From Chloroflexota bacterium (lineage in GTDB: Bacteria > Chloroflexota > UBA11872): 64,000 bases of DNA. Shown piece by piece: positions 3,129-36,771 of the stretch (the first letter of the stretch is position 1; the number at the start of each line of letters is the position of its first letter). Both the position numbers and the translations under genes were made by a program. The stretch is from positions 186,001-250,000 of the forward strand of contig JAPOYR010000004.1 of NCBI GenBank assembly GCA_026706485.1, given 5' to 3'. The notes beneath the pieces were generated by a model that worked only from the letters and a program-made list of their open reading frames with translations, had not been told where the DNA came from and ran no database searches.

Positions 3129-4583
3129 CTACCGGAAATGCTCCGGCGCGCGGGTGAAGTTGATCTGCGGGCCGGCGGCGCGGACAGCGGCCTCGCCGCC
3201 GCTGCGCTCCACCAGCCGGCGCTGGGCCGCCTTGGCCTCGGCCTCGACGGCCTCGGGATCGACGATCGTGCGCAACTGCGCCTCGAAGCGCTGCAGATCG
3301 CCTGCGTACGCCGGATCGCCCGCCAGGTCGTGACGCTCCTCCGGGTCGTTCGCCAGGTCGAAGAGTTGCGGCGGAAAGCCGTGGAAGTGCACGTACTTCC
3401 AGCGCTCGTCGCGCAGCATGAAGGCGCCCGACACCGAGCCGCTGGCGTGATATTCGGCGAACGTCGTGCGCGACGCCGGCCCCTCGCCCCGCGCCAGCGG
3501 CCACAGCGACATGCCGGGCAGGTCGGCGTCGGCGGCTTCGAGCGGCACGCCAACCCCCTCGCAAATGGTCGGAAAGGCGTCGACCAGCGAGACGCTCACG
3601 TCGCGCACCGCGCCCATTGGCACGTCGGGTCCGGCCAGGATCAGCGGCGCAGCTACCGCGCTGTCGTACATCACGCTCTTGCCCCAGAGTCCGTAGTCGC
3701 CCAGGGTCTCGCCGTGGTCGCTGGTGTAGATCACACGGGTGCGGTCGGCCAGGCCGCGCGCCTCCAGCGCGTCCAGCACGCGGCCGATCTGCCGGTCGAG
3801 ATAGGTGCACATGCCCAGGTAGGCGGCGATGGCGCGGCGCGTGGGCTCCTCGCCCGGGAAGTCGCCGGGCGTGAATATCCGCGCCTCGCGGAATGCCGAT
3901 ACGTGCGGATGATCTGGCCATTCGTCGGGCTGCCACTGGATCGGCAGCGGCACGTCGTGCAGTGGGTAGCGCGCGAAGTCGGACGGCGGCGCGATCAGCG
4001 GAAAATGCGGCAGCGTGAAGGAGACGAAGAGGCACCAGGGCTCCTCGTGCCGTCCAGACTCGTCCCGCAGCCAGGTGCAGGCCTCGTCGGCGATGGCGGC
4101 GTCGAAGCGCAGGTATTCCGAATCGCCCGGCCCGGCGGCGTGAACGTTCTCGAGCTGGCGGCGCGCGCGCGGCATGTTCCAGCGAATCGAGCCGAACGCG
4201 TCGCCGCGCTCGAACATCACGTGCAAGGGAAGGCGCTGGTCCGGCAAGCCGATGTCGTCGCGCGTGTTGCGGTAGTGCAGCTTGCCGATGGTGGTGACCT
4301 GGCGGCCGAGGGCGCCCAGCCGGTGGCCCCAGCTTGGCGCCGCGTCGCCGGTATAGGGCATGGCGTTATCCCAGGCGCCAATCTCGTGGCCGTAGCGCCC
4401 GGTGAGGAAGCTGGCCCGCGACGGCACGCAGATGGGGATGTTGCACGAGGCGTTGGTGAAGCGTGTGCCGCGGGCCGCCAGCGCGTCGAGATGCGGCGTC
4501 TGGACCAGCGGATGCCCGGCGCAGCCGAGCACGCGCGCGTTGTGCTCGTCCGACATGATGACGAGCAGGTTCTGGGGTTGCAT
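3129..4583 (-). CDS. Sulfatase (formylglycine-dependent, alkaline-phosphatase fold)
   Basis: 484 residues, the usual size for a soluble type I sulfatase. The N-terminus carries the metal-binding SDEHN segment (D12). C52 sits in C-V-P-S-R, the signature whose cysteine is oxidised to formylglycine. A later SDHGE motif matches the second metal-binding site. No signal peptide is visible, so the enzyme may act in the cytoplasm on imported sulfated sugars or sulfate esters; the substrate cannot be read from sequence. The ATG at 4583 is preceded by a TGGAG ribosome site. Neighbouring sugar-type oxidoreductase and sialidase-like genes suggest glycan breakdown. A formylglycine-generating enzyme is not in the window. 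Confidence 0.93.
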   Translation of the reverse strand: MQPQNLLVIMSDEHNARVLGCAGHPLVQTPHLDALAARGTRFTNASCNIPICVPSRASFLTGRYGHEIGAWDNAMPYTGDAAPSWGHRLGALGRQVTTIGKLHYRNTRDDIGLPDQRLPLHVMFERGDAFGSIRWNMPRARRQLENVHAAGPGDSEYLRFDAAIADEACTWLRDESGRHEEPWCLFVSFTLPHFPLIAPPSDFARYPLHDVPLPIQWQPDEWPDHPHVSAFREARIFTPGDFPGEEPTRRAIAAYLGMCTYLDRQIGRVLDALEARGLADRTRVIYTSDHGETLGDYGLWGKSVMYDSAVAAPLILAGPDVPMGAVRDVSVSLVDAFPTICEGVGVPLEAADADLPGMSLWPLARGEGPASRTTFAEYHASGSVSGAFMLRDERWKYVHFHGFPPQLFDLANDPEERHDLAGDPAYAGDLQRFEAQLRTIVDPEAVEAEAKAAQRRLVERSGGEAAVRAAGPQINFTRAPEHFR

Positions 4584-17328: not shown

Positions 17329-20259
17329 TCAGCCACCCTCGCAGAACGGCAAGTTGAGCCTGAAAAGATCGTTGTCCGCCACATCTCGCAACCCCTGCGG
17401 GATGCACCCCGTGACCGAGATTCCCGCGAGCCGAAGCAGTTTGAGGTTGTTCAGCCGACCCAGCTCGGGTGGGAGCTCGCCGCTCAACGGGTTGTCTCGG
17501 AGGAGCAAAGCCTCAAGGGCGGCGAGGCGACCGAACTCGGCCGGGATCGGGCCGGTGAGTCGGTTCCCGTGGAGGTCGAGCCGTTCCAGGCTTTCCAGGT
17601 TGCCCAGCTGAGCTGGAACCGTCCCGGTCAACTGGTTGCCGGGGAGTTCCAGCCGTTCGAGATTGTGGAGCTGGCCCAGCGCCGGTGGGATCTCGCCCCG
17701 CAACTGGTTGGAACTGAGCTTCAGCACCTCCAGATTGATGAGGTTCGCCAGTGCCGGCGGAATTGCCCCACTGAGCTGGTTCTCATGGAGCATCAAGGTC
17801 TTCAGGTTGGCCAGGCGGCCCAGCGCCGGTGGGATCTCACCCCGCAATTGGTTGTGACCGAGTTCCAGCTTGGTCAGATTGGCGAGGCGGCTCAGCTCGG
17901 GCGGAATCTCACCAGTCAGCTGGTTGTCGGTGAGGTGGAGGGCGGCCAGATTGGAAAGGCTCCCCAGCTCTGGCGGAATCTCACCCCGCAGGTGGTTGTA
18001 GTCGAGCCCAAGCACGGACAGATTCGCGAGCCTCGCCAGCTCGGGCGGAATGCGCCCCGTGAGCCGGTTGTGCATGACCAACAGTTGCTCCAAGCCGGCC
18101 AGCCGGCTGAGCGCGGGCGGAATCGGTCCCTCCAATTGGTTCGAATAGAGCCGAAGTCCTTTCAGGTTGGAGAGCTCGCCCAATTCGGCGGGGATCGTCC
18201 CACTGAGCTGGTTTGCACTGAGCACAAGCTGTTCCACGTTGGTCAGGCGGCCAAGCGCCGGCGGAATCGCGCCGCTCAACTGGTTCCCGTGGAGCTGCAG
18301 ATGCGCCAGGTTCGAAAGGTTGCCTAGTTCAGGCGGGATCGTCCCGCTGAGCCGACAGCGCCGCAGCGAAAGCCACCGAAGATTGGAAAGGCCGCCAAGC
18401 TCAGGCGGGATCGGCCCGTGCAGCTGGTTGTCGCCCAATCCGAGCCATTCCAGGTTGGCGAGACCACCCAAGGCTCGCGGGATCGCACCAGTGAGTTGGT
18501 TATCTTCCAGGTTGAGCTTGCTGAGATTGGCGAGACGGCCGAGCGCCGGTGGAATCTCGCCGGCCAGGTGGTTGGAAGAGAGTTCCAGCACCTTCAAGTT
18601 GGCGAGACTTGCCAACTCCGGAGGAATTGTGCCGCTGAGTTGGTTGTCGCCCAGCAGCAACCGTTCCAAATTGGCTAGGCGGCTCAGCGCCGGCGGAATT
18701 GCGCCGTTCAACTGGTTCCCTTCGAGCCCGAGCCATTTGAGATTGGCAAGCTGGCCCAACTCGGGCGGGATCGCTCCAGTCAACCGGTTGTTTCGGAGCC
18801 CCAGAAACTCGAGGGTGGCAAGCCGGCCCAGCGCAGGCGGGATCGTCCCGCTGAGCTGGTTCTCATGCAGCCCCAACCAGTCGACACTGGCGAGGAGGCC
18901 CAACTGCGGAGGTATCGCTCCCCGCAACCGGTTGTGCTCGAGCCCCAGCGTTCTCACGTTGGTGAGACCGCCCAGCGCGGGTGGGACTTCTCCGCTCAAC
19001 TGGTTGTGATGGATCCAAAGGTGCTCCAGGAGTGCAAGGCGCCCCAGCTCCGGTGGAATCGCGCCACTCAACTGGTTGGTATTGACGTCGAGCTGGGTGA
19101 GGCTGGCGAGGTAGCCAAATTCGGGTGGGATCGCGCCCCGCAGCTGGTTGTGACTGAGCGTCAACCGGCGCAGCTTGCCGAGGAAGCCCAATGCGGGCGG
19201 GATGGTCCCGCGCAACCGGTTGTCGTGCAAGTGCAACTCGATGACCTGCTCGAACTCGTCCGCCATGACGCCATGCCAATCATTGAGCGGCCGCTCGCTC
19301 AGCCAGTTGGCGTTGTTGGCCCAGTTTGGTCCGTCGGTGGCGTGGTAGAGCCGGATTAGCGCTTCCCGGTCGGACGCCGGCGGGAGCGGCAGCGACGGAG
19401 GCGGCGCCGGCGTTGACACAGGTGTGGGTTCCGGAGGTGGCGCGGTCGTGGGCAGCGCGAACACGGGAAGTCCGGCGATCTCGTGCTGTACAACGGGCGC
19501 CTTCGCCGCGTCCGGGATGATCACGTTGCTCAGCCGCTTCACCTTGTCCGGCACGTTCTGCAGGTTCGCGCGCCCAACGGTCGTTCCCGGCGCGGGCACG
19601 TTCCAGATCACGAACACCGTCCGCTGCGCTCGCAACATCTGCAGGCCCTGGGGATGGCCGTTGACTTCCCGCTCCTCGTAGCGGATTGGCAGGCCGTAGA
19701 GATTGAGCCAGTCGGGCTCGCTCAGGAACCGGTCTTTCATGGCCGCGTTTTGGTCCAGCAGCACCAGGTGGTTCTTGGTGATCGTGGCGAAGTCGGCGCC
19801 CTGATCGGCCTCCAGTACCTGGTGGGGCGGGACGTTGGGCAGCTCGACGTCGGGATAGCGATTCGCCAGCACGTCGAGCGTGTTGTAGTAGTTCATCCGA
19901 CCTTTGCCGGGATCCCATTGCAGGATCACCTTCTGGAAGGCCTGCAAGGTGAACGGGCCGCGCGCCCAGCGCTGGCTGACGGGATAGCCGATGGCCTGCA
20001 GGTCGCGCTCTCGGACGAAGTCCCAGAGCGGCACGCCGCCGGCATTGGTGACGGCGAAACCGTCGTTGGGATCAGCCGTATCGCCGCCGGTGATGGTGAA
20101 AAGGCAGCCGTCGTCGAGGGGGACGCCCTCGCACTCCAGCGCCGCCGCCGACGGCCAAACGGTCAGCGCGGCCGCGGCGACGATGGCCAGCACCGCCGGC
20201 GCCACGCGCAGGCGGCGCCAGGGTTCACGCCGGTGGAGCTGTGGCATGGCGATCGTCAC
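17329..20259 (-). CDS. Secreted protein with about 25 plant-type leucine-rich repeats
   Basis: 976 residues. A basic N-terminus and hydrophobic core at about 20-40 form a signal peptide. Residues about 40-265 include GGVPLWDFVRERDLQAIGYP and LQAFQKVILQWDPGKGRM, resembling a domain common in secreted Chloroflexota proteins. A proline-rich linker (about 270-290) leads to an N-terminal LRR cap (DREALIRLYHATDGPNW), then about 25 tandem 24-residue repeats of the form LxxLxLxxNxLxGxIPxxLGxLxN and a cysteine-containing cap at the C-terminus. The LxGxIP signature is that of the plant-specific LRR class. A binding or adhesion role at the cell surface is likely. The repeats are also visible as 72-base periodicity in the DNA. 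Confidence 0.93.
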   Translation of the reverse strand: MTIAMPQLHRREPWRRLRVAPAVLAIVAAAALTVWPSAAALECEGVPLDDGCLFTITGGDTADPNDGFAVTNAGGVPLWDFVRERDLQAIGYPVSQRWARGPFTLQAFQKVILQWDPGKGRMNYYNTLDVLANRYPDVELPNVPPHQVLEADQGADFATITKNHLVLLDQNAAMKDRFLSEPDWLNLYGLPIRYEEREVNGHPQGLQMLRAQRTVFVIWNVPAPGTTVGRANLQNVPDKVKRLSNVIIPDAAKAPVVQHEIAGLPVFALPTTAPPPEPTPVSTPAPPPSLPLPPASDREALIRLYHATDGPNWANNANWLSERPLNDWHGVMADEFEQVIELHLHDNRLRGTIPPALGFLGKLRRLTLSHNQLRGAIPPEFGYLASLTQLDVNTNQLSGAIPPELGRLALLEHLWIHHNQLSGEVPPALGGLTNVRTLGLEHNRLRGAIPPQLGLLASVDWLGLHENQLSGTIPPALGRLATLEFLGLRNNRLTGAIPPELGQLANLKWLGLEGNQLNGAIPPALSRLANLERLLLGDNQLSGTIPPELASLANLKVLELSSNHLAGEIPPALGRLANLSKLNLEDNQLTGAIPRALGGLANLEWLGLGDNQLHGPIPPELGGLSNLRWLSLRRCRLSGTIPPELGNLSNLAHLQLHGNQLSGAIPPALGRLTNVEQLVLSANQLSGTIPAELGELSNLKGLRLYSNQLEGPIPPALSRLAGLEQLLVMHNRLTGRIPPELARLANLSVLGLDYNHLRGEIPPELGSLSNLAALHLTDNQLTGEIPPELSRLANLTKLELGHNQLRGEIPPALGRLANLKTLMLHENQLSGAIPPALANLINLEVLKLSSNQLRGEIPPALGQLHNLERLELPGNQLTGTVPAQLGNLESLERLDLHGNRLTGPIPAEFGRLAALEALLLRDNPLSGELPPELGRLNNLKLLRLAGISVTGCIPQGLRDVADNDLFRLNLPFCEGG

Positions 20260-21416: not shown

Positions 21417-22061
21417 GTGGACGCCAACCTCTACGTGGACGGATTCAACCTCTTCTATCGGGCGCTGCGACACACGCCTTGGCGCTGGCTTGACCTGCAA
21501 GCTCTTAGCCTCTGCCTGTTCGAGCCCGAATTCACGCTCCGCCGCATCCGCTATTTCACGGCGCTCATCAGGAGCGGATCCCATAATCCACAGAAGGAGA
21601 TTCGGCAGCAGACCTACCTGCGCGCGCTGCGCACGATCCCACAGTTGGACATTCACGAGGGGCGTTTCCAGTCAAACACTGCGAAGCGGCCGCTGGCAGC
21701 CCCGCGATCAGACGGGCAAGAGTTCGTCAGAGTCATCGAGACTCGAGAGAAGGGCTCGGACGCCAACCTGGCGGCCTATCTCACGCGCGACGCCGCCAAA
21801 CGCGACAGCCAGGCCGCGTTCGTCGTCACCGGCGACTCCGACTTCGTGGATGTCATTCGCATGGTGCGCCGGGAGTTCAACTTTCCCGTCCATGTGATCG
21901 ACCCGCAGCAACACGTGAGCCGCCGCTTACGAGACGCGGCAACCAGCTATCGACTCCTTGACCACTCCCTGCTTCCTGAGTGTCAGTTCCCCGTCAAGCT
22001 CTTGGATTCCCACGGCACGATCGCGCGGCCGTCAGCGTGGCGGGCCTCCGGCGAGCGGTGA
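21417..22061 (+). CDS. NYN-domain (PIN-like, LabA/DUF88) predicted ribonuclease
   Basis: 214 residues from a GTG. MDANLYVDGFNLFYRAL gives the first acidic residue and the Asn of NYN proteins, and VVTGDSDFVDVIRMVRREF gives the second acidic cluster (D-S-D). Residues EKGSDANLAAYL supply the third acid site. The family are metal-dependent nucleases acting on RNA, sometimes in defence or toxin roles. Two strong hairpins sit just upstream. The C-terminal 50 residues (SRRLRDAAT-Y-LLDHSLL...) recur as a relic at 27420-27569, so the gene has been copied or moved here. Confidence 0.88.
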   Translation: MDANLYVDGFNLFYRALRHTPWRWLDLQALSLCLFEPEFTLRRIRYFTALIRSGSHNPQKEIRQQTYLRALRTIPQLDIHEGRFQSNTAKRPLAAPRSDGQEFVRVIETREKGSDANLAAYLTRDAAKRDSQAAFVVTGDSDFVDVIRMVRREFNFPVHVIDPQQHVSRRLRDAATSYRLLDHSLLPECQFPVKLLDSHGTIARPSAWRASGER

Positions 22062-27271: not shown

Positions 27272-27419
27272 CACCAGCCGCTTACGCCAAGTGGGCCAGC
27301 CCCGGGTCCGCGTGGTCCGGCGCTTCCCCACGTTCGTCACTCACTCTCCCGCTCCGGCCCCACGTTCCGCGCCAGGCCCGGAGCCCCGCCGCGCCGAGGA
27401 CGCCCCACCAGGGTCCCGG

Positions 27420-27569
27420 GATAGGCAGCTGAGCCGCCGTTTGCGAGACGCGGCGACCAGGTATCAACTCCTCGACCACTTCCTGCATTCAGAGTGGCGG
27501 ATTCCGTTTCCGATGTCGGATCGCCACGGAACCATCACCCAGCCAGGGGTCGTGGGAGTGAACGCGTAG
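27420..27569 (+). pseudogene. Relic of the C-terminus of a NYN-domain gene
   Basis: Read from 27420, the frame gives DRQLSRRLRDAATRYQLLDH and ends at the TAG at 27567-27569. This matches the end of the intact NYN protein at 21417-22061 (SRRLRDAATSYRLLDHSLL), including a later DRHGTI-type segment and position of the end. The catalytic N-terminal part is missing, and the DNA upstream is not NYN sequence. It lies in the 319-base gap between the oxidoreductase and the phage-derived cassette. The relic may mark an insertion edge or an old duplication. Confidence 0.72.
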
Positions 27570-27590: not shown

Positions 27591-27851
27591 CTAGCTCAGT
27601 CGCAGCATCCCCAACCACGATCCGTGTCGGCCGCGCACTGCCTTGTCCAGCGCCGCGAGCGTCCCGGCGACCACGGCCACTCCCGCCGCGCCCAGCAGCT
27701 GCGTCCCAAGCTGGTAGATCTCGGGGCTCTGCACGGCGGCCACCGCGCCGGGTACGCCACCGGCCACGAATGCCGCGCTCACGATGCGCGCGAAGCGCCG
27801 CAGCACCCCCAGCTTCAGGCTGTAAGTCGTCGTCATCGGCTGTCCCTTCAT
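27591..27851 (-). CDS. Putative holin with two possible starts
   Basis: 86 residues. Two hydrophobic segments (about residues 24-42 and 48-68) are separated by a short loop; the C-terminus is basic. It is the last gene of the phage-derived cassette, next to a predicted lysin. Two starts are possible: ATG at 27851 (MKGQPM...) with GGAGG upstream, and ATG at 27836 (MTTTYS...) with AAGGGA upstream. The longer form has an extra lysine, as in dual-start holin/antiholin pairs. The function is inferred from size, topology and neighbours. Confidence 0.65.
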   Translation of the reverse strand: MKGQPMTTTYSLKLGVLRRFARIVSAAFVAGGVPGAVAAVQSPEIYQLGTQLLGAAGVAVVAGTLAALDKAVRGRHGSWLGMLRLS

Positions 27852-27950
27852 CCAACTGCCTCCATCGCTTGCCCCGTATCAGGTACGGGGTCACATCTCG
27901 CCAAGCCCGACCGCCGAAACTCCGCAGCGGGCGGGCGTCTTTGATTTCCG

Positions 27951-28958
27951 TTACTCCGCGCCGGTCGCCTGATCGGGACGCGCCACGGGGTCGTGATAGA
28001 ACCGCTCGGCGGTCATGACCCGTCGCCAGTCCTCCGGGCGGAACGCGGTTTCACCCGCCCTGCGCGCCGCCTGGATCACCTCGCCGAGGTGCGCCAGCGC
28101 CGCGAGCTTGCGGCTGTGGTTGGCGTCGCGGTCTCGCCGCAGCGCCTCGAGCTCCGCCGTACGTGCCATGTCCAAGCCCTTCAATATCGTGTCGGCGTAG
28201 TGGTAGCCCTGCGCACGGAACGCGCCGTCCGAACCGCGGCCGGTGTAGTAGTCCGCCAGCGCCTCGCGGTAGTCGCCGCCGCGGTGATCCAGGTGCGCCG
28301 CCATCAGCCGCGCCGCATAGTCCAGCGCCGCGAACGGGTCGAAGGTGCGCCCGCGCATCGCCGGGTGCCGCCGTGGATTGATCTGCGCCAGTCCCTCGGC
28401 TCCCGCCAAGCTCACAGCCAGCGGGTTCCAATCGCTCTCCAGGGTGATCTGCCGCCGAAGCACCTCGGGGTCGTAACCGGCGTCACGCGCGTAGGCGTCC
28501 GCGTATAGGCGCAGCGGGTCGACCCGCGAGCCCCGTACGCGGAAGGTCGCTGGGTCTATGACGCCTTGCGGTGAGGCGTCCAGATGCACGTGGTGCCCCG
28601 TGCTGTTCCCCGTCGAGTCGCAATGCCCGAGCGTCTGGCCGGCGGCCACGCGCTCGCCCACGCCGACCGTCGGTGGCTCGTCGAAGTGGAGCAGGCGCCA
28701 CAGCACGCCCGCGTCATCGCGCAGCGCCACGGCGTTGCCGTAGGGAAATCCGTCTCGCACCGACGGTTCCCGCGTGCTCGGCCGGTCCGTCGTCCAGACT
28801 GCCTCAATCGTTCCCGCCGCCGGCGCCTTCACCGGACGGCGGTACACCGACTCCCGCTGCAGCGCCAGGTCGATTCCGCCGTGGCGATACCTTCCGCGGT
28901 CCAGGCCGAACACCGAGGTCACGCGAATGACGCCGTCGAGCGGCGGCAGATAGGCCAT
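27951..28958 (-). CDS. Phage-type lysin: M23 peptidase plus lytic transglycosylase
   Basis: 335 residues in two catalytic parts. Residues about 10-130 are an M23 (LytM-like) metallopeptidase with H26-x3-D30 and H123-V-H125 as zinc ligands. Residues about 150-260 are an SLT-type lytic transglycosylase with catalytic E174 in LESDWNP and the AEGLAQINP motif. The C-terminal 75 residues are charged and helical. It would cut both peptide cross-links and glycan strands of peptidoglycan. There is no signal peptide, so release would need a holin, and one candidate lies on each side. Confidence 0.9.
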   Translation of the reverse strand: MAYLPPLDGVIRVTSVFGLDRGRYRHGGIDLALQRESVYRRPVKAPAAGTIEAVWTTDRPSTREPSVRDGFPYGNAVALRDDAGVLWRLLHFDEPPTVGVGERVAAGQTLGHCDSTGNSTGHHVHLDASPQGVIDPATFRVRGSRVDPLRLYADAYARDAGYDPEVLRRQITLESDWNPLAVSLAGAEGLAQINPRRHPAMRGRTFDPFAALDYAARLMAAHLDHRGGDYREALADYYTGRGSDGAFRAQGYHYADTILKGLDMARTAELEALRRDRDANHSRKLAALAHLGEVIQAARRAGETAFRPEDWRRVMTAERFYHDPVARPDQATGAE

Positions 28959-28974
28959 CAGCTCGCCCCGCCCC

Positions 28975-29223
28975 TCATCGCAGCACCAGGGCCAGAACGC
29001 CGCCGCCCACGCTCGTCAAGGTCAGGCCGACCAGCCCGTAAATCACGCTGCGAATGGGTCGAAACTCCGCCCGCGTCACGTAGGTCGCGCGCGACTCGGT
29101 CTTGTGTGCCGCCAGGTCCGCCCGCAACAGCGCCACCTCGCGCAGGATCGACGCCGTGCGCTCGTCGATGCGCGCCAGGAGGCGGCCGTTGCCGTCGGGC
29201 GTCGGGCGTGCGCCGCTCGTCAC
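28975..29223 (-). CDS. XhlA-like small phage membrane protein
   Basis: 82 residues. An N-terminal amphipathic coiled-coil-like segment (LLARIDERTASILREVALLRADL) is followed by one membrane helix at the C-terminus (about 62-81). This is the layout of XhlA-type holin partner proteins. Its ATG overlaps the TGA of the glycoside-hydrolase-like gene (ATGA), and the lysin follows after 16 bases, so it belongs to the lysis module. Confidence 0.65.
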   Translation of the reverse strand: MTSGARPTPDGNGRLLARIDERTASILREVALLRADLAAHKTESRATYVTRAEFRPIRSVIYGLVGLTLTSVGGGVLALVLR

Positions 29224-30233
29224 GCCCAGATCCGTCGAAAGTCGGCGTCGGCCTCCGCCATCCGCCCCACGCCATCGGTCAAGGCCTCATCGCGCCATTG
29301 GCCGTCGCCGTTGGCATCCACGAACCAGGCCAGACCCTCGAGGCGTCGCCCGAACACGGCGCAGGCGTAGGCGAAGGCGTTCGGCAGCAGGCCCGGCGGA
29401 TAGGCCGCGGCGGAGGGCGCATCGGTGCGCGCGTTGTACTCCGCGATGATGACCGGCTTGCGCGCCAGCCCGACGGTGCGCAGGGTCTCGTCCCACGTCT
29501 GCAAGACGTTGGAGCCCCACCGCCGCCCCCGTCGATCCCGCGGGTCGCGCCACGGCTCGTGCCGTCCCCCGTGGGCGTCGCCGTTGGGTCCGGTGCGCGC
29601 GTACGCATGCAGCGCCACGCCCTGGAAGCGCCGCGACCAGGCCGTTCGCGCCGCGTCCCGGCACCGCTCCCAAAACTCCGCCGTATAGCACGCCCACGGC
29701 GATTGCTCCACCGCGGCCTTGGGCCGCCCGTCGCGCGGGGCAAATGGTCCCGTGGGCGTGACGAAGAAGCGGCAGCGGGATGCGGCGTGCGTCCGCCACA
29801 CCTGGAGGGCGTTCCACGGATCGCTCGGCTCGTTGCCGGCGCCGTTGAACACCCGCGCCATCCAGGCGGGGCTCACGCCGGAGTCGTCGGCCTCGGAGCG
29901 CCGCCAGTTGGGCTCATTGCCGAAGGTCACGTCGATGCCGCCGAAATTCGGCGCCAGCTCCTCCAGCCCGTGGAGATAGGCGTCCAGCTCCGCCCCGGTC
30001 CGCGGCTGATCGACGCCGGCTCGGTACTTGACCTTGAGCAAAACCCGATGCCCGGCGTCGCGCAGCACGCGGCAGCGGCTCGCCATTTCCAGCCAGTGCA
30101 GCTGGCGGCCGCCGCTGGGATGCGTATACACATGCTCGACAAAGAGGGTCGGCACGGGATAGCCCGGCGTCCGCGCCGGATTCCAGAAATGCACACCGAG
30201 GAGGGGCGCGGGGTCGGGGACCGGGCGGGGCAC
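29220..30233 (-). CDS. Clan A glycoside-hydrolase-like TIM-barrel protein in the phage cassette
   Basis: 337 residues from the GTG at 30233, which overlaps the upstream TAG by one base (TAGTG) and has GGGGTG upstream; a longer reading from an ATG at 30275 would overlap the preceding gene. E107 in F-G-N-E-P-N-W fits the acid/base and E265 in IIAEYNA the nucleophile of a clan A (GH5/39-like) barrel. No signal peptide is seen. A tail-borne enzyme that cuts a capsule or exopolysaccharide is plausible because it sits directly after a tail-fibre-like gene. The protein is intact. Confidence 0.75.
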   Translation of the reverse strand: MPRPVPDPAPLLGVHFWNPARTPGYPVPTLFVEHVYTHPSGGRQLHWLEMASRCRVLRDAGHRVLLKVKYRAGVDQPRTGAELDAYLHGLEELAPNFGGIDVTFGNEPNWRRSEADDSGVSPAWMARVFNGAGNEPSDPWNALQVWRTHAASRCRFFVTPTGPFAPRDGRPKAAVEQSPWACYTAEFWERCRDAARTAWSRRFQGVALHAYARTGPNGDAHGGRHEPWRDPRDRRGRRWGSNVLQTWDETLRTVGLARKPVIIAEYNARTDAPSAAAYPPGLLPNAFAYACAVFGRRLEGLAWFVDANGDGQWRDEALTDGVGRMAEADADFRRIWA

Positions 30234-30913
30234 TAGGCGTTCACCCCAAGCGCCATCCAGGCAAAGCCCGCCCACTGTCCATGCGACGCGCTCCCGCGGA
30301 CGGCTTCAGCGGTGAACCCGCTGGCCGTGATGTCCTTGGCGAACACTCTCGAAAAGCGCTGGTGGTGCGCGTGGTAATCGCCGAAGTCGTCAATGGACTC
30401 AGGGGGGCTGGCGCCGCCATGCGCCCCAAGGAGCGACACGAACACGATCGGCGCCGAGCCGAAGGCCGATTCGAAGGTGATGGCCTTCTCGTCGCTCTGC
30501 AGCGTGGCGAGCGAGATGAAACTCCAACCGGCTTCCGCGCGGAGGGTGGAAACGCGCGTGTCGTTGCGCCCGGCGCCGTCCTGGACGCTGGTAAGCGCGA
30601 TGCCGCCGACACTGGGCGCCAGCTTCGCCGCCGTCACGGCGGCGTCGGCCAGCTTGTCCGCGGTCACCGCTGCGTCCGCCAAGGCGTCGGTGACCACCGC
30701 GCCGGGCGCCAACTTCGGGTCCGTGACCGCCCCGTCGGCGAGCGCGTCGCTGTCCAGGGGTGGTCCTTGCCCGGCCGTGCCGTCATGCCGATGCCCGGCG
30801 GCGGCATCGAAGGCCGCGTCGACGGCGTCTGCGTTGGCGTTGACGCCCCCCACGTCATACCGCTCCGTGGGCAGCGGCTTGGTGAGGTTGAGATTCAGCG
30901 TCGTCGTTGGCAT
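30233..30913 (-). CDS. Phage tail-fibre-like protein
   Basis: 226 residues from the ATG at 30913, which has a near-perfect AAAGGAGG site; an upstream reading frame is arginine/serine rich and was rejected. The N-terminus (TLNLNLTKP) and RYDVGGVNANADAVDAAFD resemble phage tail proteins. Residues about 60-110 hold four short repeats of the form [DA][AK]LADGAVT or DKLADAAVT, a pattern frequent in tail fibres. The C-terminal 100 residues look like a beta-rich receptor domain. It follows the large 776-residue protein by 10 bases. Confidence 0.75.
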   Translation of the reverse strand: MPTTTLNLNLTKPLPTERYDVGGVNANADAVDAAFDAAAGHRHDGTAGQGPPLDSDALADGAVTDPKLAPGAVVTDALADAAVTADKLADAAVTAAKLAPSVGGIALTSVQDGAGRNDTRVSTLRAEAGWSFISLATLQSDEKAITFESAFGSAPIVFVSLLGAHGGASPPESIDDFGDYHAHHQRFSRVFAKDITASGFTAEAVRGSASHGQWAGFAWMALGVNA

Positions 30914-30923
30914 CGGTCCTCCT

Positions 30924-33254
30924 TTAGAGCTGGCTGATCTGGCGGTGGGTATAGGCCGCCAGGTGGTCATGGCGATAGGTCGCGAGGCGGCGATGCCGGC
31001 CATGGGCGGCGGTCGGCCGGTACTCCGTGGCGGAGATGTGCATGGCCCATGCGAGCGGCCGGCCCGTCGCGCGGACCTCGGCCTCGCGCACCAACACTTC
31101 CAGCGCCTCGCCGTCCGGGGTGGTGAGCACCACAGGCAGCTCCGAAGCCGCCGCGGCCATGAGCGCCCGCTTGAGGTCACGCGCCGTCCGACGGTCGCGG
31201 CCCCCGTCTCGCAACGAAAGCTGGTCGGCAAGCCGCACGCGGAAGTCAAAGACCCGCCGGAAGCCGGTGCGCGCCGCGTAGGCCAGTGTGACGGCCCGGA
31301 TCACCGGCGTGGCGCGGTCGCTGTGTGTCGTGAGCCGCAGGCGCAGATCAATCGAAGTTCCGGCCACCGCCGAACCGAAGTCGACCCGCTGGCCCGAGGC
31401 GGTGGCGAACCGACCGAGCGGCGCATAGGCTCCGTGCCCATCCAGCCGGTAGGCGGCGTCGACAAAGGCGTCTGGCCCCAGCCGCGCACCGTCGATGTTC
31501 AGCCCGAGGAACGCGGTGCGCCGGGCGGCGGGGCTGCCGTGGAAGCGCGACAGCCGCAGCTCGCCCGACGCGGCAAAGCGGCACTGGGGGTCGTGCAAGG
31601 GATTGGCGGTGTGCCGCGGCAGGATGATCGCGCCAATGTCGTCGTCCAGCCCGAGATACAGCCGCGGGTTTGGCCCCGGAACGTCCGAGACCCACATATG
31701 GCGGCATTCGCGTTGGCCAAGGTCGGCCAGCGGATGCCAGGCGTCGCGCTCCGCGTCGTGGCACAGAAGATAGGTGATGCCCTTGTCGCTGCGGAGGGCG
31801 GCGTACAAGAAAAAGGCGTCGCCCGCGCAGGCGGTGATGCGGCCGCGAACCGGCGAGTCGTTGTCTGGCAGCGTCTCGGGCCCCACCAGCTCGAACGCGC
31901 CCGGCGCGAAGCGATAGAGCCCCTCCTTCGATGGCAGCCACCACGCCCCGCGCCACACCGCGCCTCCCCGGCCGTCGCTCCAATCGCGCAGTGCCGCCGG
32001 ACGTGGCCACGACGCCTCGAACGCCGCCTCACCGGATGATCGAAGGCGAAACAGCCCGTCGCTCTTGACCGCATAGGGCCGGTCGCCCAGCGACGCAAGC
32101 GCTGTCACGGTTTGACCCGGGCCGCCAACCGACTCGCCGGACGTCCACGTCGCGGCGCCGCCTCCGTCCACCGAGCGCGAAATCCGGGGAAAGCCCACTT
32201 CCGACGACGAGCGCAACAGCGCATCTCCGACCACGAGGAACCGGTCGGCCTTGCGGGGCTGGTGCACGGCAATGGCGTGCAGCCGCGTTCTGGCGTCCAG
32301 CGTCGCGGTCGCCGACAGGCGCAGCCAGAAGGCGTGGATGCCCTCGATGCGTGAGGGACGCCACGTGACCGGCTCCGTGAACTCTCCCGCGCCGGCGCGC
32401 CCCAGCGTGGCGGACTCGACGATCGTCCGGTCGACCCAGTCACCGACAGGCTCCCATGCAGCGCCCGTCCAGAACTCGGCCCTGAGCGTTGTGGCGCGCC
32501 GGTTGATCCGCTCGCGCGGGTCCAGCCGCACGCTGTCGAACGGTGCGTCGGATCCCAGGAGCAGCCAGGCGGCGCCCGCGGCCAAGCCGCTCAGGTGAAC
32601 CTCGGCCGACTCCGTCTGATCGGTGTAGGTCACGCCGCCGTCGGTGGTCACAAGCACGGCGGTCGGCTTCGCCTGCACTCCCGGATGGGGCGTCCAGGCG
32701 CTGCCGTCGAACGTCCAATAGGGACCGTCACCGGGCCCGCCGCCGACCGCGACGAACGCGTGGGGCGCCGCCGCCGCGCCCTGGAAGACAGCCGCCGAAA
32801 CCGGCGTGACGCCGTCGCCAAACTGGTGCGCCAGCGTCCAGCGGGCGCCGTCGGTTGATTGGTAGACGGCAGAGCCGATCAGCGCGTAGAGCACGCCGCC
32901 CAGCTCGAAATGGCCGCGCACCGGGCCGTCCGCGCTGGTGGGGCTCTCGGTGAGGGCCGGCGGCAGCATGATCTGATTGGGAAAGCGCGCGTCCACGAAG
33001 CCGTGGGCGTATTGCCGCCCGGCTTCCGCCGGCGACGTGCTGGCGCCGTAGCCGCCCGTCAGGTCGCCGGTGGTCCAGGCGGCCTCATGCTCGGGAGGAA
33101 ACGGCGCATAGGCCCGGGCCGGCCCCGAAATGGGCGGCGGCAAGGCTTCCAAGCGTCGCTCGCGCCAGGCCAGGCCGCCGTCGTCGTCCAGCATCAGGCC
33201 CGTCCCATGCAGCACGCAGTCATGGGGGAAGGGGGATCGCTGCGACCTGGTCAT
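30924..33254 (-). CDS. Large phage structural protein, unidentified
   Basis: 776 residues without a signal peptide. The first 110 residues are proline-rich. Several blades have beta-propeller-like wording, such as ALIGSAVYQSTDGARWTLA and AFVAVGGG. The C-terminal 150 residues are beta-rich with a basic, tyrosine-rich end. The start abuts the stop of the 268-residue gene, and its placement between connector-like and fibre-like genes suggests a tail or baseplate part. I found no named family. Confidence 0.75.
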   Translation of the reverse strand: MTRSQRSPFPHDCVLHGTGLMLDDDGGLAWRERRLEALPPPISGPARAYAPFPPEHEAAWTTGDLTGGYGASTSPAEAGRQYAHGFVDARFPNQIMLPPALTESPTSADGPVRGHFELGGVLYALIGSAVYQSTDGARWTLAHQFGDGVTPVSAAVFQGAAAAPHAFVAVGGGPGDGPYWTFDGSAWTPHPGVQAKPTAVLVTTDGGVTYTDQTESAEVHLSGLAAGAAWLLLGSDAPFDSVRLDPRERINRRATTLRAEFWTGAAWEPVGDWVDRTIVESATLGRAGAGEFTEPVTWRPSRIEGIHAFWLRLSATATLDARTRLHAIAVHQPRKADRFLVVGDALLRSSSEVGFPRISRSVDGGGAATWTSGESVGGPGQTVTALASLGDRPYAVKSDGLFRLRSSGEAAFEASWPRPAALRDWSDGRGGAVWRGAWWLPSKEGLYRFAPGAFELVGPETLPDNDSPVRGRITACAGDAFFLYAALRSDKGITYLLCHDAERDAWHPLADLGQRECRHMWVSDVPGPNPRLYLGLDDDIGAIILPRHTANPLHDPQCRFAASGELRLSRFHGSPAARRTAFLGLNIDGARLGPDAFVDAAYRLDGHGAYAPLGRFATASGQRVDFGSAVAGTSIDLRLRLTTHSDRATPVIRAVTLAYAARTGFRRVFDFRVRLADQLSLRDGGRDRRTARDLKRALMAAAASELPVVLTTPDGEALEVLVREAEVRATGRPLAWAMHISATEYRPTAAHGRHRRLATYRHDHLAAYTHRQISQL

Positions 33255-34061
33255 CTACAGCCGCTCCCCGAGCTGGACCCGCCGCACGGCCCTGGGCTGG
33301 TAGAGCCGGGAAAGCCGCTGAAACTCTTGCGCGGCCTCCTGCTGCAGCACGGCGAAGCGGTCCACATCCGCCGCCGCCGCGTCCCGGCGCAGGCGGCGAT
33401 AGGCGTGCGCCAGCGCCCCCGCCACCACCCAGTCAGCCGGGGCGTCGGTGATGCTCTGGTTGTTGGCCAGAGCCTCGTAGGGACGCAGCGCCTCGACCAC
33501 CAACGCGCCGCCCGGCGCGTGCCCAACCTCCAACCAGAACGGCGAAGGGCTTGCAACGGGACGTCGCCTGAGCCGCCACCAATCCACCGCGCGCAGGTGC
33601 TCGCCGCGACGCTCCCAAACCTCGACGACCTGCTGGCGCCGAGTGACCCAGGCCGGCAGCGGGAACTGCCGCTGAGCGTCGGCGACCGACGTCAGGTCGG
33701 CCAGCGTTCGGCGCCAGCAGCGCGCCAGCGTGTCGTCGATGGCCTGATGCAGCTCCGCCGGCGAGAGTAGGCGCAGCAGCTCGTAGGCCGACGTCCCGTC
33801 GATGGGCTGTGCGAAGGGCCGATTGACCGTGACCGACCCCGACGCCGGGTCGTAGACCGTCACGCGCCGGACCTCGCCCGCATTGGCCCCCGCGGTGATG
33901 TGCAGCCAGGCGCCGGTCCACACCTCGTCCGACGCGCCGGCGTCTTGGAGCCGGTCCGGGTCGGCCAGCGCCACGGTGGACCCGCCGCCGGCGACGCCGA
34001 CCACTGTGCGCATCATCCGCGCGGCCACGGCCTGCCGCAGCGCCGCTCGCGTGACGCTCAC
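33255..34061 (-). CDS. Phage connector/neck-like protein
   Basis: 268 residues from a GTG at 34061. It has an N-terminal helix and a beta-rich segment (residues about 25-90, ITAGANAGEVRRVTVYDPASGSVTVNRPF), then helices with LHQAIDDTLARCWRRTL and a C-terminal helical part ending in YQPRAVRRVQLGERL. Genes of this size and type just after a capsid gene commonly code for head-tail adaptor or neck proteins. The match is by position and composition, not by a definite motif. Confidence 0.65.
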   Translation of the reverse strand: MSVTRAALRQAVAARMMRTVVGVAGGGSTVALADPDRLQDAGASDEVWTGAWLHITAGANAGEVRRVTVYDPASGSVTVNRPFAQPIDGTSAYELLRLLSPAELHQAIDDTLARCWRRTLADLTSVADAQRQFPLPAWVTRRQQVVEVWERRGEHLRAVDWWRLRRRPVASPSPFWLEVGHAPGGALVVEALRPYEALANNQSITDAPADWVVAGALAHAYRRLRRDAAAADVDRFAVLQQEAAQEFQRLSRLYQPRAVRRVQLGERL

Positions 34062-34074
34062 GACCGCCCACCCA

Positions 34075-34302
34075 TCAAGCGTCGCGCCATTGCGGCCGCT
34101 GGGCGTCGAGCCGCTCGCTGAAGGCGCTGCCGCGGTCGGCCAAACGCCGGTGCTGCCGCTCGAGCGCCGCCGCCGCCGCGTCGGCGGCCTCGCTCGCGTC
34201 GGGGGTCACCACCACCACCGGCGAATGCGGCGTCGCGCCGCGAAACCGGTGCACCAGCCGCGCCCGCCGCTCCCGCGGAATCCAGATGATCGGACCAGAC
34301 AT
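34075..34302 (-). CDS. Small protein of the phage cassette
   Basis: 75 residues, MSGPIIWIPRERRARL at the start and an alanine- and arginine-rich helical C-terminus. AAGGGA lies nine bases before the ATG. It stands between the capsid and connector-like genes, 13 bases before the latter. No function can be given; head-decoration, head completion and scaffold remnant are all possible. Confidence 0.55.
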   Translation of the reverse strand: MSGPIIWIPRERRARLVHRFRGATPHSPVVVVTPDASEAADAAAAALERQHRRLADRGSAFSERLDAQRPQWRDA

Positions 34303-34349
34303 TCACACGTCCCTTCTTCACCGGCGCCATGCAGCGCCCGTCGTCATTC

Positions 34350-34416
34350 CCGTAGGGCGGCCCTACCAAGAGGCCCGCAGGGCCAGGAGGCAGGGGCGGT
34401 TCGTGAACCGCCCCTG
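34350..34416. repeat. Dispersed palindrome inside the phage-derived cassette
   Basis: CAGGGGCGGTTC (34391-34402) and GAACCGCCCCTG (34405-34416) form a perfect 12-base stem, preceded by TCGTCATTCCCGTAGGGCGGCCCTACC-like sequence (given here only in outline) that recalls other repeats of the window, notably 38327-38396. It fills much of the 162-base gap between the capsid gene and the 75-residue gene. Its presence implies that the cassette has been in this genome long enough to take up host repeats. Confidence 0.75.
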
Positions 34417-34464
34417 CGCCGCGCCGAAGTCGCGGCATGCGATCTCGGCCGGGGCACCCGTGGC

Positions 34465-35325
34465 CTAGCTGCTGGGCGCCGCCGCGTCGAAGTACATCTC
34501 CACGCCCCAGGCGTCCTGGTACTCCGCATAGCCGTAGTCGGCCACGACGTTGAGCTCCCAGGCGCGCAGCGAGGCGTCGCGCTCGCGCTCGCGCTCCACG
34601 GCCCAGTCCTTGAAGATCACCAGGACCAACGCCTCGCGCGAGAACACCCCGCCCTTGGCGTCGTCGGCGTTGTCCACCGGCAAGTTGCCGGCCTGGAAGA
34701 GGTCGACCCCGAAGGCGCGACCGACCCAGTGGTTCTCGAGCACCGTCTGCGAGATGCCGCTAGGCACCGGGTAGGTGCCCACGGGCGCAAGGTCCGCCGC
34801 CAGGTCATGCGCCTGGTAGGGATGCAGCACGCCGAAGTACGGCATGGGCGCCGGCTCGGCGGCCGCGTGCAGCCGCGACACCGCCGCGCGCAAGTGACCC
34901 ATGGAGATGGACTCGCCGGTGGCGCCCAGCGACGTGCCGAAGCCGTCCAGCAGCCCCAGCAGGTCGGCGTCCAGCTTCTTGGCCACCGCGTCGCCGAGCA
35001 CGCGGCCGGCGGCGCGCGCCATGTCCTCACGCGCGGTGCGCAGCGCCCGGTCCGTGATCACGATCTGTGCGCCAACCTCGGCCGGCGTGATCGTGACCTT
35101 GGTGGTCGCCAGCGTCTGCGGGTTGGTCATGTCCACGCCCTCGGTGAGGGCGCCGGCCGTGACCGTGCCGAACTTGGGAATCTCCAGCGTGTCGCCAGCA
35201 CCGCGACTCACGCGGTAGGTGCGCACCAGCGGCTCCATGACCGTGCGGTGCATCTGGGTCCGGCGCGCCTCGGCGATCACCGTGTCGACGACGTCTCCGA
35301 TCGAGGCGCCTGTCGTAATCGCCAT
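34465..35325 (-). CDS. Phage major capsid protein
   Basis: 286 residues from the ATG at 35325, with AAAGGAGA upstream. Key segments are IPKFGTVTAGALTEGVDM, ITPAEVGAQIVITDRAL and YFGVLHPYQAHDLAADL, which match the wording of HK97-fold major capsid proteins of marine podovirus/siphovirus type. The family usually has 280-340 residues. The gene is intact, with a long leader. It is the first gene of a nine-gene minus-strand cassette. No protease, portal or terminase lies beside it. Confidence 0.82.
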   Translation of the reverse strand: MAITTGASIGDVVDTVIAEARRTQMHRTVMEPLVRTYRVSRGAGDTLEIPKFGTVTAGALTEGVDMTNPQTLATTKVTITPAEVGAQIVITDRALRTAREDMARAAGRVLGDAVAKKLDADLLGLLDGFGTSLGATGESISMGHLRAAVSRLHAAAEPAPMPYFGVLHPYQAHDLAADLAPVGTYPVPSGISQTVLENHWVGRAFGVDLFQAGNLPVDNADDAKGGVFSREALVLVIFKDWAVERERERDASLRAWELNVVADYGYAEYQDAWGVEMYFDAAAPSS

Positions 35326-36022
35326 GGACTCTCCTTTCACGCCCCAAACGGGCGTCGGGGGAGCAATGAAGGCTCGCCGCGCGGATCCGAGAGACGAACC
35401 CCTGGGCACAGGGCGTCCCAAAGGCGGCGGCCGGGGCACCGGGCCGGACTCCTGCCGGTGATGCTGCCGGACCGCCGCCTTCCAGCCGCGCGGAAGCGTG
35501 CGGCGCCCGTCGATCGGGACGCCGGAGCGCCGGCGCCGGTCCGCACGGGCGTCCATCCGCCTTGCGAGGCGCGTCCGCCGCCTGCGGGCCGGCCCGGCCA
35601 CACCGGGCGCCGACCGAGGCGCACACCCACGGGACCCACTCGCGCGGCTCCGGGTCCGGAGCGCCGGGCGCATCCGCGTGCGTGCTTACACAGGGAACTC
35701 TACGTTACTTTAGTAACGTATGCAAATGGAGTACGGACAGGAGTGGCGAAGGATGCGGGCCTGGCGCCAGCCCAGCTTGGCTTTGGCACGGGGAGATCAC
35801 GGGCTGCCCGGCCTCGCGGGCCAAGCGTCTCGCGACCTGTTCCGGCGACCGGCCCTGCCGGAGGCGGGAGAGGGCCCCGGCTGCGCAGTGTGGGATCGCG
35901 GTCGAGGCGCGGCCCGCGCCGGCGGCGGGCGCGGCCATGCTTACGCCTCACCGGATTTTGCAAGCGTCTCCGCACGCAGCAATCCGTCCCCACCGACCCG
36001 GAGAACGAACCGATCGCGCGAC
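35326..36022. other. Gap of about 700 bases with no recognisable gene
   Basis: Between the capsid gene and the thioredoxin-like lipoprotein. All long frames here are arginine- and proline-rich shadows in very GC-rich DNA and none has a good ribosome site or family match. The only structured feature is the promoter-like palindrome at 35697-35725. The 35330-35690 stretch could be decayed phage sequence where packaging genes would be expected, but nothing in it can be identified. Confidence 0.5.
35697..35725 (-). promoter_or_regulatory. Putative promoter with an operator palindrome, upstream of the capsid gene
   Basis: On the minus strand, TTGCAT (35720-35725) and TAGAGT (35697-35702) are 17 bases apart and match four of six bases each of the -35 and -10 boxes. 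The spacer and edges form the perfect palindrome TACGTTACT-TT-AGTAACGTA (35701-35720), a typical repressor site. The region is visibly AT-richer than its surroundings. Transcription would run about 365 bases to the capsid ATG. Confidence 0.5.
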
Positions 36023-36695: not shown

Positions 36696-36771
36696 TGGCA
36701 GCCCCGCCCGGACTCGAACCGGGGCGCGTGGTTTAGGAAACCACCGCTCTATCCAACTGAGCTACGGGGCC
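36696..36771 (-). tRNA. tRNA-Arg, anticodon CCT (reads AGG)
   Basis: The minus strand folds into a full cloverleaf: acceptor GGCCCCG/CGGGGCT with a G-U first pair, D arm GCTC/GAGC, anticodon stem GTGGT/ACCAC with loop TTCCTAA, and T arm CCCGG-TTCGAGT-CCGGG. The discriminator is G and the CCA end is encoded in the DNA. tRNA genes are frequent attachment sites for integrating elements, and this one is about 1 kb from the phage-derived cassette; I saw no second copy of its 3' end in the window. Confidence 0.95.

What the first reader, a model, noticed from the sequence alone, without database searches (positions are those of the whole stretch)
27591..35725. Phage-derived capsid-to-lysis cassette with no visible packaging genes
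Nine intact, tightly spaced minus-strand genes run from a major capsid protein through connector-like, large structural, tail-fibre-like and glycoside-hydrolase-like proteins to an XhlA-like protein, an M23+SLT lysin and a holin-like protein. Seen in sequence: intact frames, ribosome sites and overlaps. Not seen: terminase, portal, head protease or integrase. Such a set could be a remnant prophage, a satellite, or a domesticated particle (for example a gene-transfer or effector-delivery body). Intact frames argue against random decay.
Basis: partly seen in the sequence, partly recalled or inferred. Interest (0 to 1): 0.78.

Follow-up and report, generated by a model that had tools for sequence, protein, structure and literature searches.

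The report
Domesticated phage particle in sponge Chloroflexota
A family of sponge-associated bacteria has inherited the parts list of a short-tailed virus particle, scattered over at least three chromosome sites and kept intact by selection; it looks like a previously undescribed gene transfer agent, a virus shell that bacteria use to ship their own DNA.

Summary
The nine genes are real (window 27591-35325, minus strand). The capsid gene starts at 35325, not 35725. The apparent lack of packaging genes is a window-edge effect. A portal, a small TerS-like protein and a large terminase lie on the same contig, ending 3.0 kb left of the window. A scaffolding gene with a zinc-ribbon gene and an XRE regulator lies about 165 kb further on. 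In the relatives the portal-terminase block sits a few kb upstream of the capsid genes; the window's genome carries an inversion.

The capsid gene is single-copy and intact in 6/6 genomes of the genus and 12/13 of the sister genus. It is absent from 22 other genomes of the class. Between genera the capsid protein (84% identity) is more conserved than DnaA (67%). Median dN/dS is 0.06-0.38 for every gene, gene distances track DnaA, and the capsid-block tree closely matches the DnaA tree. The free relatives are phages with the order scaffold-capsid-p3-p4; p4 folds like P22 gp10/T7 gp12 nozzles. I found no integrase or replication gene in the blocks.

Best explanation: a podovirus-derived, vertically inherited particle that packages host DNA, i.e. 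a gene transfer agent (GTA). Domestication is well supported. DNA packaging and delivery are inferred, not shown. My searches found no GTA reported in Chloroflexota.

The parts
34465..35325 (-). major capsid protein (HK97 fold), 286 aa; single copy; 84% identical between genera
   Evidence: Pfam Phage_capsid_4 2.5e-10 and PHROG_267 3.5e-12; found in 18 of 19 family genomes; start supported by conserved N-terminus and RBS; IMG/VR phage homologues up to 43%
34075..34302 (-). p2, small conserved protein of unknown role (75 aa)
   Evidence: conserved between capsid and p3 genes in all 18 genomes; dN/dS 0.06 within the genus; no family match
33255..34061 (-). p3, probable head-tail adaptor; homologous to the protein before p4 in related phages
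   Evidence: hmmsearch E 5e-67 to 3e-61 in IMG/VR contigs L063, L064, L022; alignment A6; the genus-2 and phage forms carry an insert that the window genus lacks
30924..33254 (-). p4, beta-propeller tail nozzle / hub (776 aa)
   Evidence: AlphaFold model (pLDDT 55) matches Pa223 tail, cyanophage A4 portal-tail complex, P22 gp10, Sf6 gp8, PhiM1 nozzle, T7 tail proteins; homologues next to p3 in phage contigs L063, L064, L209-L213
30233..30913 (-). p5, tail-fibre-like protein with C-terminal H-type lectin domain (226 aa)
   Evidence: Pfam H_lectin 2.3e-6, PHROG tail fibre 2e-8; most variable member, dN/dS 0.38 in the genus
29220..30233 (-). p6, unassigned 337-aa protein with a conserved GNEP motif; fused N-terminally to the lysin in the sister genus
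   Evidence: no Pfam, NCBIfam or PDB match; about 30% identity to the N-terminal half of 652-aa lysins in genus 2; motif conserved in A11
28975..29223 (-). p7, small protein with one C-terminal hydrophobic stretch (XhlA-like topology only)
   Evidence: hydropathy; no family match
27951..28958 (-). p8, lysin: M23 peptidase + SLT transglycosylase
   Evidence: Pfam M23 5.2e-12, SLT 2e-9; orthologues in both genera
27591..27851 (-). p9, small protein with two hydrophobic stretches, possible holin
   Evidence: hydropathy; next to the lysin in 5 window-genus genomes and G006; no family match
3129..4583 (-). host sulfatase that neighbours the capsid gene in relatives; marks the inversion breakpoint in this genome (context, not part of the particle)
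   Evidence: gene order comparison

Best explanation
The cassette is the structural and lysis block of a domesticated, short-tailed (podovirus-type) phage particle that works as a gene transfer agent. A dispersed, vertically inherited gene set makes the particle: portal + TerS-like + TerL (block A, 3 kb left of the window), XRE regulator | zinc-ribbon protein + scaffold (block B, about 165 kb from block A), and capsid, adaptor, nozzle, fibre and lysis genes (block C, this finding). Inferred mechanism: the XRE protein controls expression; capsid and scaffold build a shell on the portal; TerL fills it with host DNA, probably without sequence choice; p3/p4 close the shell with a short tail; p5 (lectin domain) binds surface sugars of nearby cells; p8, perhaps with p7/p9, lyses the producer. 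Shown here: gene content, homology, dispersal, co-inheritance with the host, purifying selection, conserved TerL motifs. Not shown: particle formation, what is packaged, delivery.
For: Capsid gene single-copy and intact in 18/19 family genomes, the only miss being 76% complete; core order conserved in two genera. Portal-TerS-TerL block next to it in relatives; scaffold in 18/19 genomes. TerL: PHROG_2 3.6e-23, Walker A GGERAGKS and nuclease residues conserved with active phages. Portal: PHROG_156 2.4e-4, profile match to phage portals E 3e-5. Scaffold profile hits the ORF just upstream of the capsid gene in phage contigs (2e-5). Median dN/dS 0.06-0.38 in all genes; portal, TerL and capsid like metK. 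Distances correlate with DnaA at r 0.87-0.98 and the capsid-block tree closely matches DnaA's; capsid more conserved (84%) than DnaA (67%) between genera. No member gene is an integrase or replication protein. The spread of 208 kb (G000) and 422 kb (G006) exceeds any plausible head. The published GTA definition lists multi-locus endogenised genomes, vertical inheritance and caudoviricete-derived proteins (PMC9662315).
Against: No particle, packaged DNA or transfer has been observed; all genomes are metagenome-assembled. No ejection proteins like those of phage L059 (788 and 1057 aa) and no decoration protein were seen in the blocks. Portal identity rests on weak profile scores plus position; its structure model failed (pLDDT 36). 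p6 is split in one genome (G001), p5 is shorter in another (G017), and the lysin sits at another locus in most of genus 2. Tail genes evolve faster in the window genus (dN/dS 0.28-0.38), which would also fit relaxed constraint there.
Confidence: 0.74

Rival explanations
1. A domesticated phage particle that does something other than transfer DNA, for example a lysin- or fibre-armed antibacterial particle, a protein cage, or an effector-delivery body. The capsid and tail are kept and DNA packaging is incidental or lost.
For: Fast-evolving lectin fibre p5 (dN/dS 0.38) and variable lysis genes suggest target specificity; no ejection proteins found; the capsid is the most conserved protein between genera.
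Against: Portal and TerL are under selection as strong as the capsid (dN/dS 0.09-0.14) with nuclease and ATPase motifs intact; a DNA-free particle would not need them. No toxin or effector gene was recognised in the blocks.
Confidence: 0.13
2. An ordinary but very old, still functional prophage or phage module, scattered by rearrangement and kept because it can still spread or because it blocks superinfection.
For: All structural genes are phage-like; related phages exist in IMG/VR; the XRE regulator resembles phage repressors.
Against: Single copy at orthologous sites in 18 genomes, trees congruent with DnaA, no integrase or replication genes, and spread over 208-422 kb, so one particle could not carry it.
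Confidence: 0.06
3. A decaying prophage remnant whose genes only look intact (the plain reading of a capsid-to-lysis fragment).
For: Split p6 in G001, shortened p5 in G017; lysin relocated in genus 2.
Against: dN/dS well below 1 for every gene, with portal, TerL and capsid comparable to metK; intact capsid, scaffold and nearly all tail genes in two genera; capsid more conserved than DnaA.
Confidence: 0.03
4. Capsid-encoding satellite or phage-inducible island that borrows missing functions from a helper phage.
For: Lacks replication genes and some virion genes.
Against: It has its own tail and lysis genes, no integrase and no mobility between sites; a prophage with portal and TerL of the Pfam types was seen in only one of 19 family genomes (G012).
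Confidence: 0.04

Closest known systems
RcGTA and Rhodogtaviriformidae (alphaproteobacterial type I gene transfer agents)
   Same: Dispersed, vertically inherited caudoviricete-derived genes that co-diversify with the host; separate loci for structural, lysis and regulatory genes; slow protein evolution (PMC9662315, PMC11841831).
   Different: Capsid profile shows no match to an RcGTA capsid chain in the PDB search. A nozzle-type short tail is predicted, unlike RcGTA's 49-nm tail (PMC9662315); a scaffold gene is present; different phylum. No shared ancestry of the domestication was found.
Bartonella BaGTA and Brachyspira BhGTA
   Same: Independently exapted GTAs with multi-locus genomes; some Bartonella particles were reported without tails or with short tails (PMC9662315).
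   Different: Particles and transfer are shown by experiment for those but not here. Homology to their genes was not tested directly.
Uncultivated phages L063, L064, L065, L209-L213 and L059 (IMG/VR)
   Same: Capsid, p3 and p4 in the same order where the contig is long enough, with a scaffold-position gene directly before the capsid gene in L063-L066 and L059 (homology significant in L063, L065 and L066).
   Different: These are viral contigs; L059 has terminase, portal, two large probable ejection proteins and extra head genes in one block; capsid identity is 43% or less.
Pelagibacter phages HTVC111P/112P/026P/202P, phage DSL-LC06, Microcystis phage Mae-JY09
   Same: Closest annotated relatives of the capsid protein (27-36%); scaffold-capsid order without an annotated protease in those read.
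   Different: Tail genes are of another type (tail tube and tape measure), so the cassette's tail comes from a different module.
P22 gp10 / Sf6 gp8 / T7 gp12 tail nozzle proteins
   Same: Predicted beta-propeller fold of p4.
   Different: Sequence identity about 10%; model of modest confidence.

Membership tests
Gene transfer agent (definition in PMC9662315) | caudoviricete-derived proteins able to form a caudovirion-like particle | tested here: met
   HK97-fold capsid, TerL, scaffold, nozzle and fibre by profile or fold; portal by weaker profile evidence and position. Particle itself not seen.
Gene transfer agent (definition in PMC9662315) | genome fully endogenised, often across several loci | tested here: met
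   at least three blocks; 208 kb apart in G000, 422 kb in the complete chromosome G006
Gene transfer agent (definition in PMC9662315) | vertical inheritance and co-diversification with the host | tested here: met
   orthologous locus in two genera; Mantel r 0.87-0.98 against DnaA; capsid-block tree closely matches the DnaA tree
Gene transfer agent (definition in PMC9662315) | genome cannot be fully packaged into one particle | tested here: inconclusive
   dispersal over hundreds of kb makes joint packaging implausible, but head size was not measured
Gene transfer agent (definition in PMC9662315) | particles contain mostly random host DNA | not testable with these tools
   needs particle purification and sequencing
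Gene transfer agent (definition in PMC9662315) | packaged DNA is delivered to other cells | not testable with these tools
   needs experiment
Rhodogtaviriformidae (RcGTA-like) | capsid homologous to RcGTA capsid | tested here: not met
   capsid profile gave no RcGTA chain up to E = 1 in the PDB search; only sequence-level, and TerL was not compared with RcGTA TerL
Temperate prophage | integrase, replication and lysogeny genes with an attachment site; sporadic presence | tested here: not met
   none recognised among the genes called in and around blocks A-C; single copy in 18 of 19 family genomes; adjacent tRNA-Arg in G000 is not next to the cassette in relatives
Capsid-forming phage satellite | mobile island with integrase, dependent on a helper's tail | tested here: not met
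   own tail nozzle and fibre; no integrase seen in the blocks; not mobile

The most novel reading that the evidence does not exclude
An independently domesticated, podovirus-type gene transfer agent in a family of sponge-associated Chloroflexota, older than the split of the family's two genera, with its genome dispersed over at least three loci and a dedicated XRE regulator: the first GTA lineage in this phylum and one with a nozzle-type tail and a retained scaffold gene.
Probability: 0.68. Interest if true: 0.85.

Novelty: new variant of a known kind. Interest (0 to 1): 0.74.

Why it matters
GTAs with known genetics come from two alphaproteobacterial groups and one spirochete, and their wider prevalence is unknown because they are hard to find by bioinformatics (PMC9662315, PMC11841831). 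A GTA-like system fixed across a Chloroflexota family of sponge-derived genomes would add a new phylum, a new phage ancestor and a new morphology. It would make gene exchange inside dense, uncultured sponge microbiomes testable from existing virus-like-particle DNA. It also shows a practical lesson: a 'capsid without terminase' locus should be checked for dispersed partner genes before it is called a remnant.

Tried and rejected
1. TerL and portal by Pfam (PF03354, PF04860): absent in 18 of 19 family genomes; this nearly led to the false conclusion that packaging genes are lost. The terminase and portal of the related phage L059 as queries also failed; only PHROG_2 found the divergent TerL, and the portal next to it was read from the sequence.
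2. tRNA-Arg at 36696-36771 as an attachment site: not next to the cassette in relatives; most likely brought there by the inversion.
3. p4 in INPHARED and in IMG/VR by single sequence: nothing; a profile later found homologues.
4. AlphaFold of the portal: three sequences only, pLDDT 36, unusable.
5. A degenerate TerL Walker B (GCE instead of DE) as a sign of decay: rejected, because active phages of this TerL group also lack the D.
6. p6 as a glycoside hydrolase: no sequence support.
7. A second, window-genus-type cassette in G018 (C24): taken as contamination of that assembly (8%), not mobility.
8. One phrogs call failed on a wrong coordinate and was repeated.
Full report
OBSERVATION. The nine minus-strand ORFs exist as described. 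Pfam and PHROG support the capsid (Phage_capsid_4 2.5e-10; PHROG_267 3.5e-12), a lectin-bearing fibre (H_lectin 2.3e-6) and an M23 + SLT lysin. The capsid protein begins at 35325 with a ribosome site just before ATG and the N-terminus shared with relatives.

DISTRIBUTION. The window lies at G000:C4:186001-250000. The capsid gene is single-copy and without internal stops in 6 of 6 genomes of the genus (95-98% identity to the query for the relatives) and in 12 of 13 of the sister genus (83-85%); the miss is a 76%-complete assembly. It is absent from the 22 other genomes of the class, and a scan of GTDB contigs found only this family: 16 loci, all titled Chloroflexi or Chloroflexota MAGs. Many names (RHO, COS) appear to fit a published set of demosponge MAGs from Rhopaloeides and Coscinoderma (PMC8163846; the prefix-to-sponge link is my inference).

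SAME LOCUS, TWO GENERA. Twenty-kilobase stretches of the relatives show capsid-p2-p3-p4-p5 (or its 350-aa counterpart) in the same order in the 17 genomes whose contigs run on past the capsid gene, with the same sulfatase upstream in both genera. In the window's own genome the block from the capsid gene to a HAD-like gene is inverted and displaced, so the sulfatase is at window 3129-4583 instead of beside the capsid gene.

THE PACKAGING GENES. Pfam profiles and the terminase and portal of a related phage found nothing family-wide. PHROG_2 then found a terminase in nearly every genome, mostly on the capsid contig, same strand, 5-15 kb upstream (the hit in the incomplete G016 is weak and of another kind). 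In G000 it ends 3 kb left of the window: portal-like 560 aa at C4:179725-181407, a 78-aa TerS-like gene, TerL 432 aa at 181718-183016. Portal and TerL are 64-97% identical across relatives. TerL scores 3.6e-23 to PHROG_2; it keeps Walker A and the nuclease residues shared with active phages, and its odd Walker B is normal for that group. Portal evidence is weaker: PHROG_156 at 2.4e-4 for the G006 protein, profile-profile E 3e-5 with probability 73% to phage portals, plus position. A structure model failed.

THE SCAFFOLD BLOCK. Between TerL and the capsid gene in most of genus 2 is a divergent XRE regulator, a zinc-ribbon-like gene and an acidic gene ending like phage scaffolds. A profile of the last one found it in 18 of 19 genomes. 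In the window genus it is at a third site (G000:C4:14643-15167), and in the complete chromosome G006 it is 422 kb from the capsid gene. Both sites lie beside the same methionine-salvage genes and carry the XRE gene; the zinc-ribbon gene was not called in G006. The profile also hits the ORF directly upstream of the capsid gene in phage contigs L063, L065 and L066 at 2e-5, which supports calling it the scaffold.

ORIGIN AND PARTICLE TYPE. Viral contigs L063 and L064 carry a gene in the scaffold position, capsid, p3 and p4 homologues in that order; L059 shows the whole ancestral order from TerL to p4. The p4 model (pLDDT 55) matches nozzle or hub proteins of Pa223, cyanophage A4, P22, Sf6, PhiM1 and T7. 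A short-tailed particle is therefore the best guess. Among isolates the nearest capsids are Pelagibacter phages and two others, 27-36%.

SELECTION AND INHERITANCE. Nei-Gojobori medians within the genus: portal 0.088, TerL 0.099, capsid 0.097, p2 0.059, scaffold 0.23, XRE 0.24, p3 0.28, p4 0.32, p5 0.38, p6 0.20, p8 0.21, p9 0.14; controls DnaA 0.047, metK 0.105, sulfatase 0.16, Sua5 0.23. Between genera the capsid protein is 84% identical, DnaA 67%, portal 65%, TerL 68%; distances of all genes correlate with DnaA at r 0.87-0.98, and the DnaA and capsid-block trees agree on the main groupings, while the portal and scaffold trees differ in places. Caveats: gene calls are from a simple script of mine, MAGs are incomplete, portal was recovered in 14 of 18 genomes (the other four stop at or near contig ends or were not resolved), and dS is modest.

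INTERPRETATION. The published GTA definition has six features. Three are met here, one is inconclusive, two need experiment. The system works, most likely, like a GTA; membership cannot be claimed without packaged-DNA evidence. I found no paper on GTAs in Chloroflexota, within an open-access library only.

LYSIS. The lysin p8 sits in the cassette in the window genus and in G006. Most other members of the sister genus carry a 652-aa fusion of a p6-like domain with the lysin at a fourth site. Lysis modules have thus moved while the head genes stayed.

VERDICT. Domestication of a phage particle is strongly supported (about 0.95). GTA function is likely (about 0.74). A remnant or a satellite is unlikely.

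Noticed in passing
L111-L115, L117 (G014:C4, G018:C27, G008:C4, G009:C32, G015:C12, G011:C9): Second TerS-TerL pairs without a portal hit in the fetched stretch, 63-67% identical to the window-genus TerL, intact in several sister-genus genomes; role unknown.
   Followed up: partly
L177:2668-10997 (G000:C10:336667-344996): Another phage-like island in the window's genome with tail-like and fibre genes, a fused p6-like + M23/SLT lysin (77% to p8) and a p9 homologue; probably the remnant of a different phage sharing the lysis module.
   Followed up: partly
L116 (G012:C67): A conventional prophage with Pfam-type terminase and portal, the only one seen in the 19 family genomes.
   Followed up: no
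window 17329-20259 and L028:4116-5504, L039:14536-16392: A 976-aa secreted leucine-rich-repeat protein in the window; the gene next to the capsid gene in the sister genus encodes a secreted Sortilin/BNR-type protein whose N-terminal part in G006 looks similar to the window protein.
   Followed up: no
window 21417-22061 and 27282-27569: The C-terminal part of an NYN-domain gene seems to be duplicated beside the cassette; the same copy is seen in L024.
   Followed up: no
L028:7186-8406 versus window:33255-34061: p3 of the sister genus and of related phages carries a roughly 130-aa insert (carbohydrate-binding-like) that the window genus has lost.
   Followed up: partly
L184:355-6790 (G018:C24): A window-genus-type cassette at a contig start in a sister-genus assembly with 8% contamination; most likely a binning error.
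   Followed up: partly
L026:7546-8547 (G001): p6 is split into two frames in one genome; real frameshift or assembly error.
   Followed up: no
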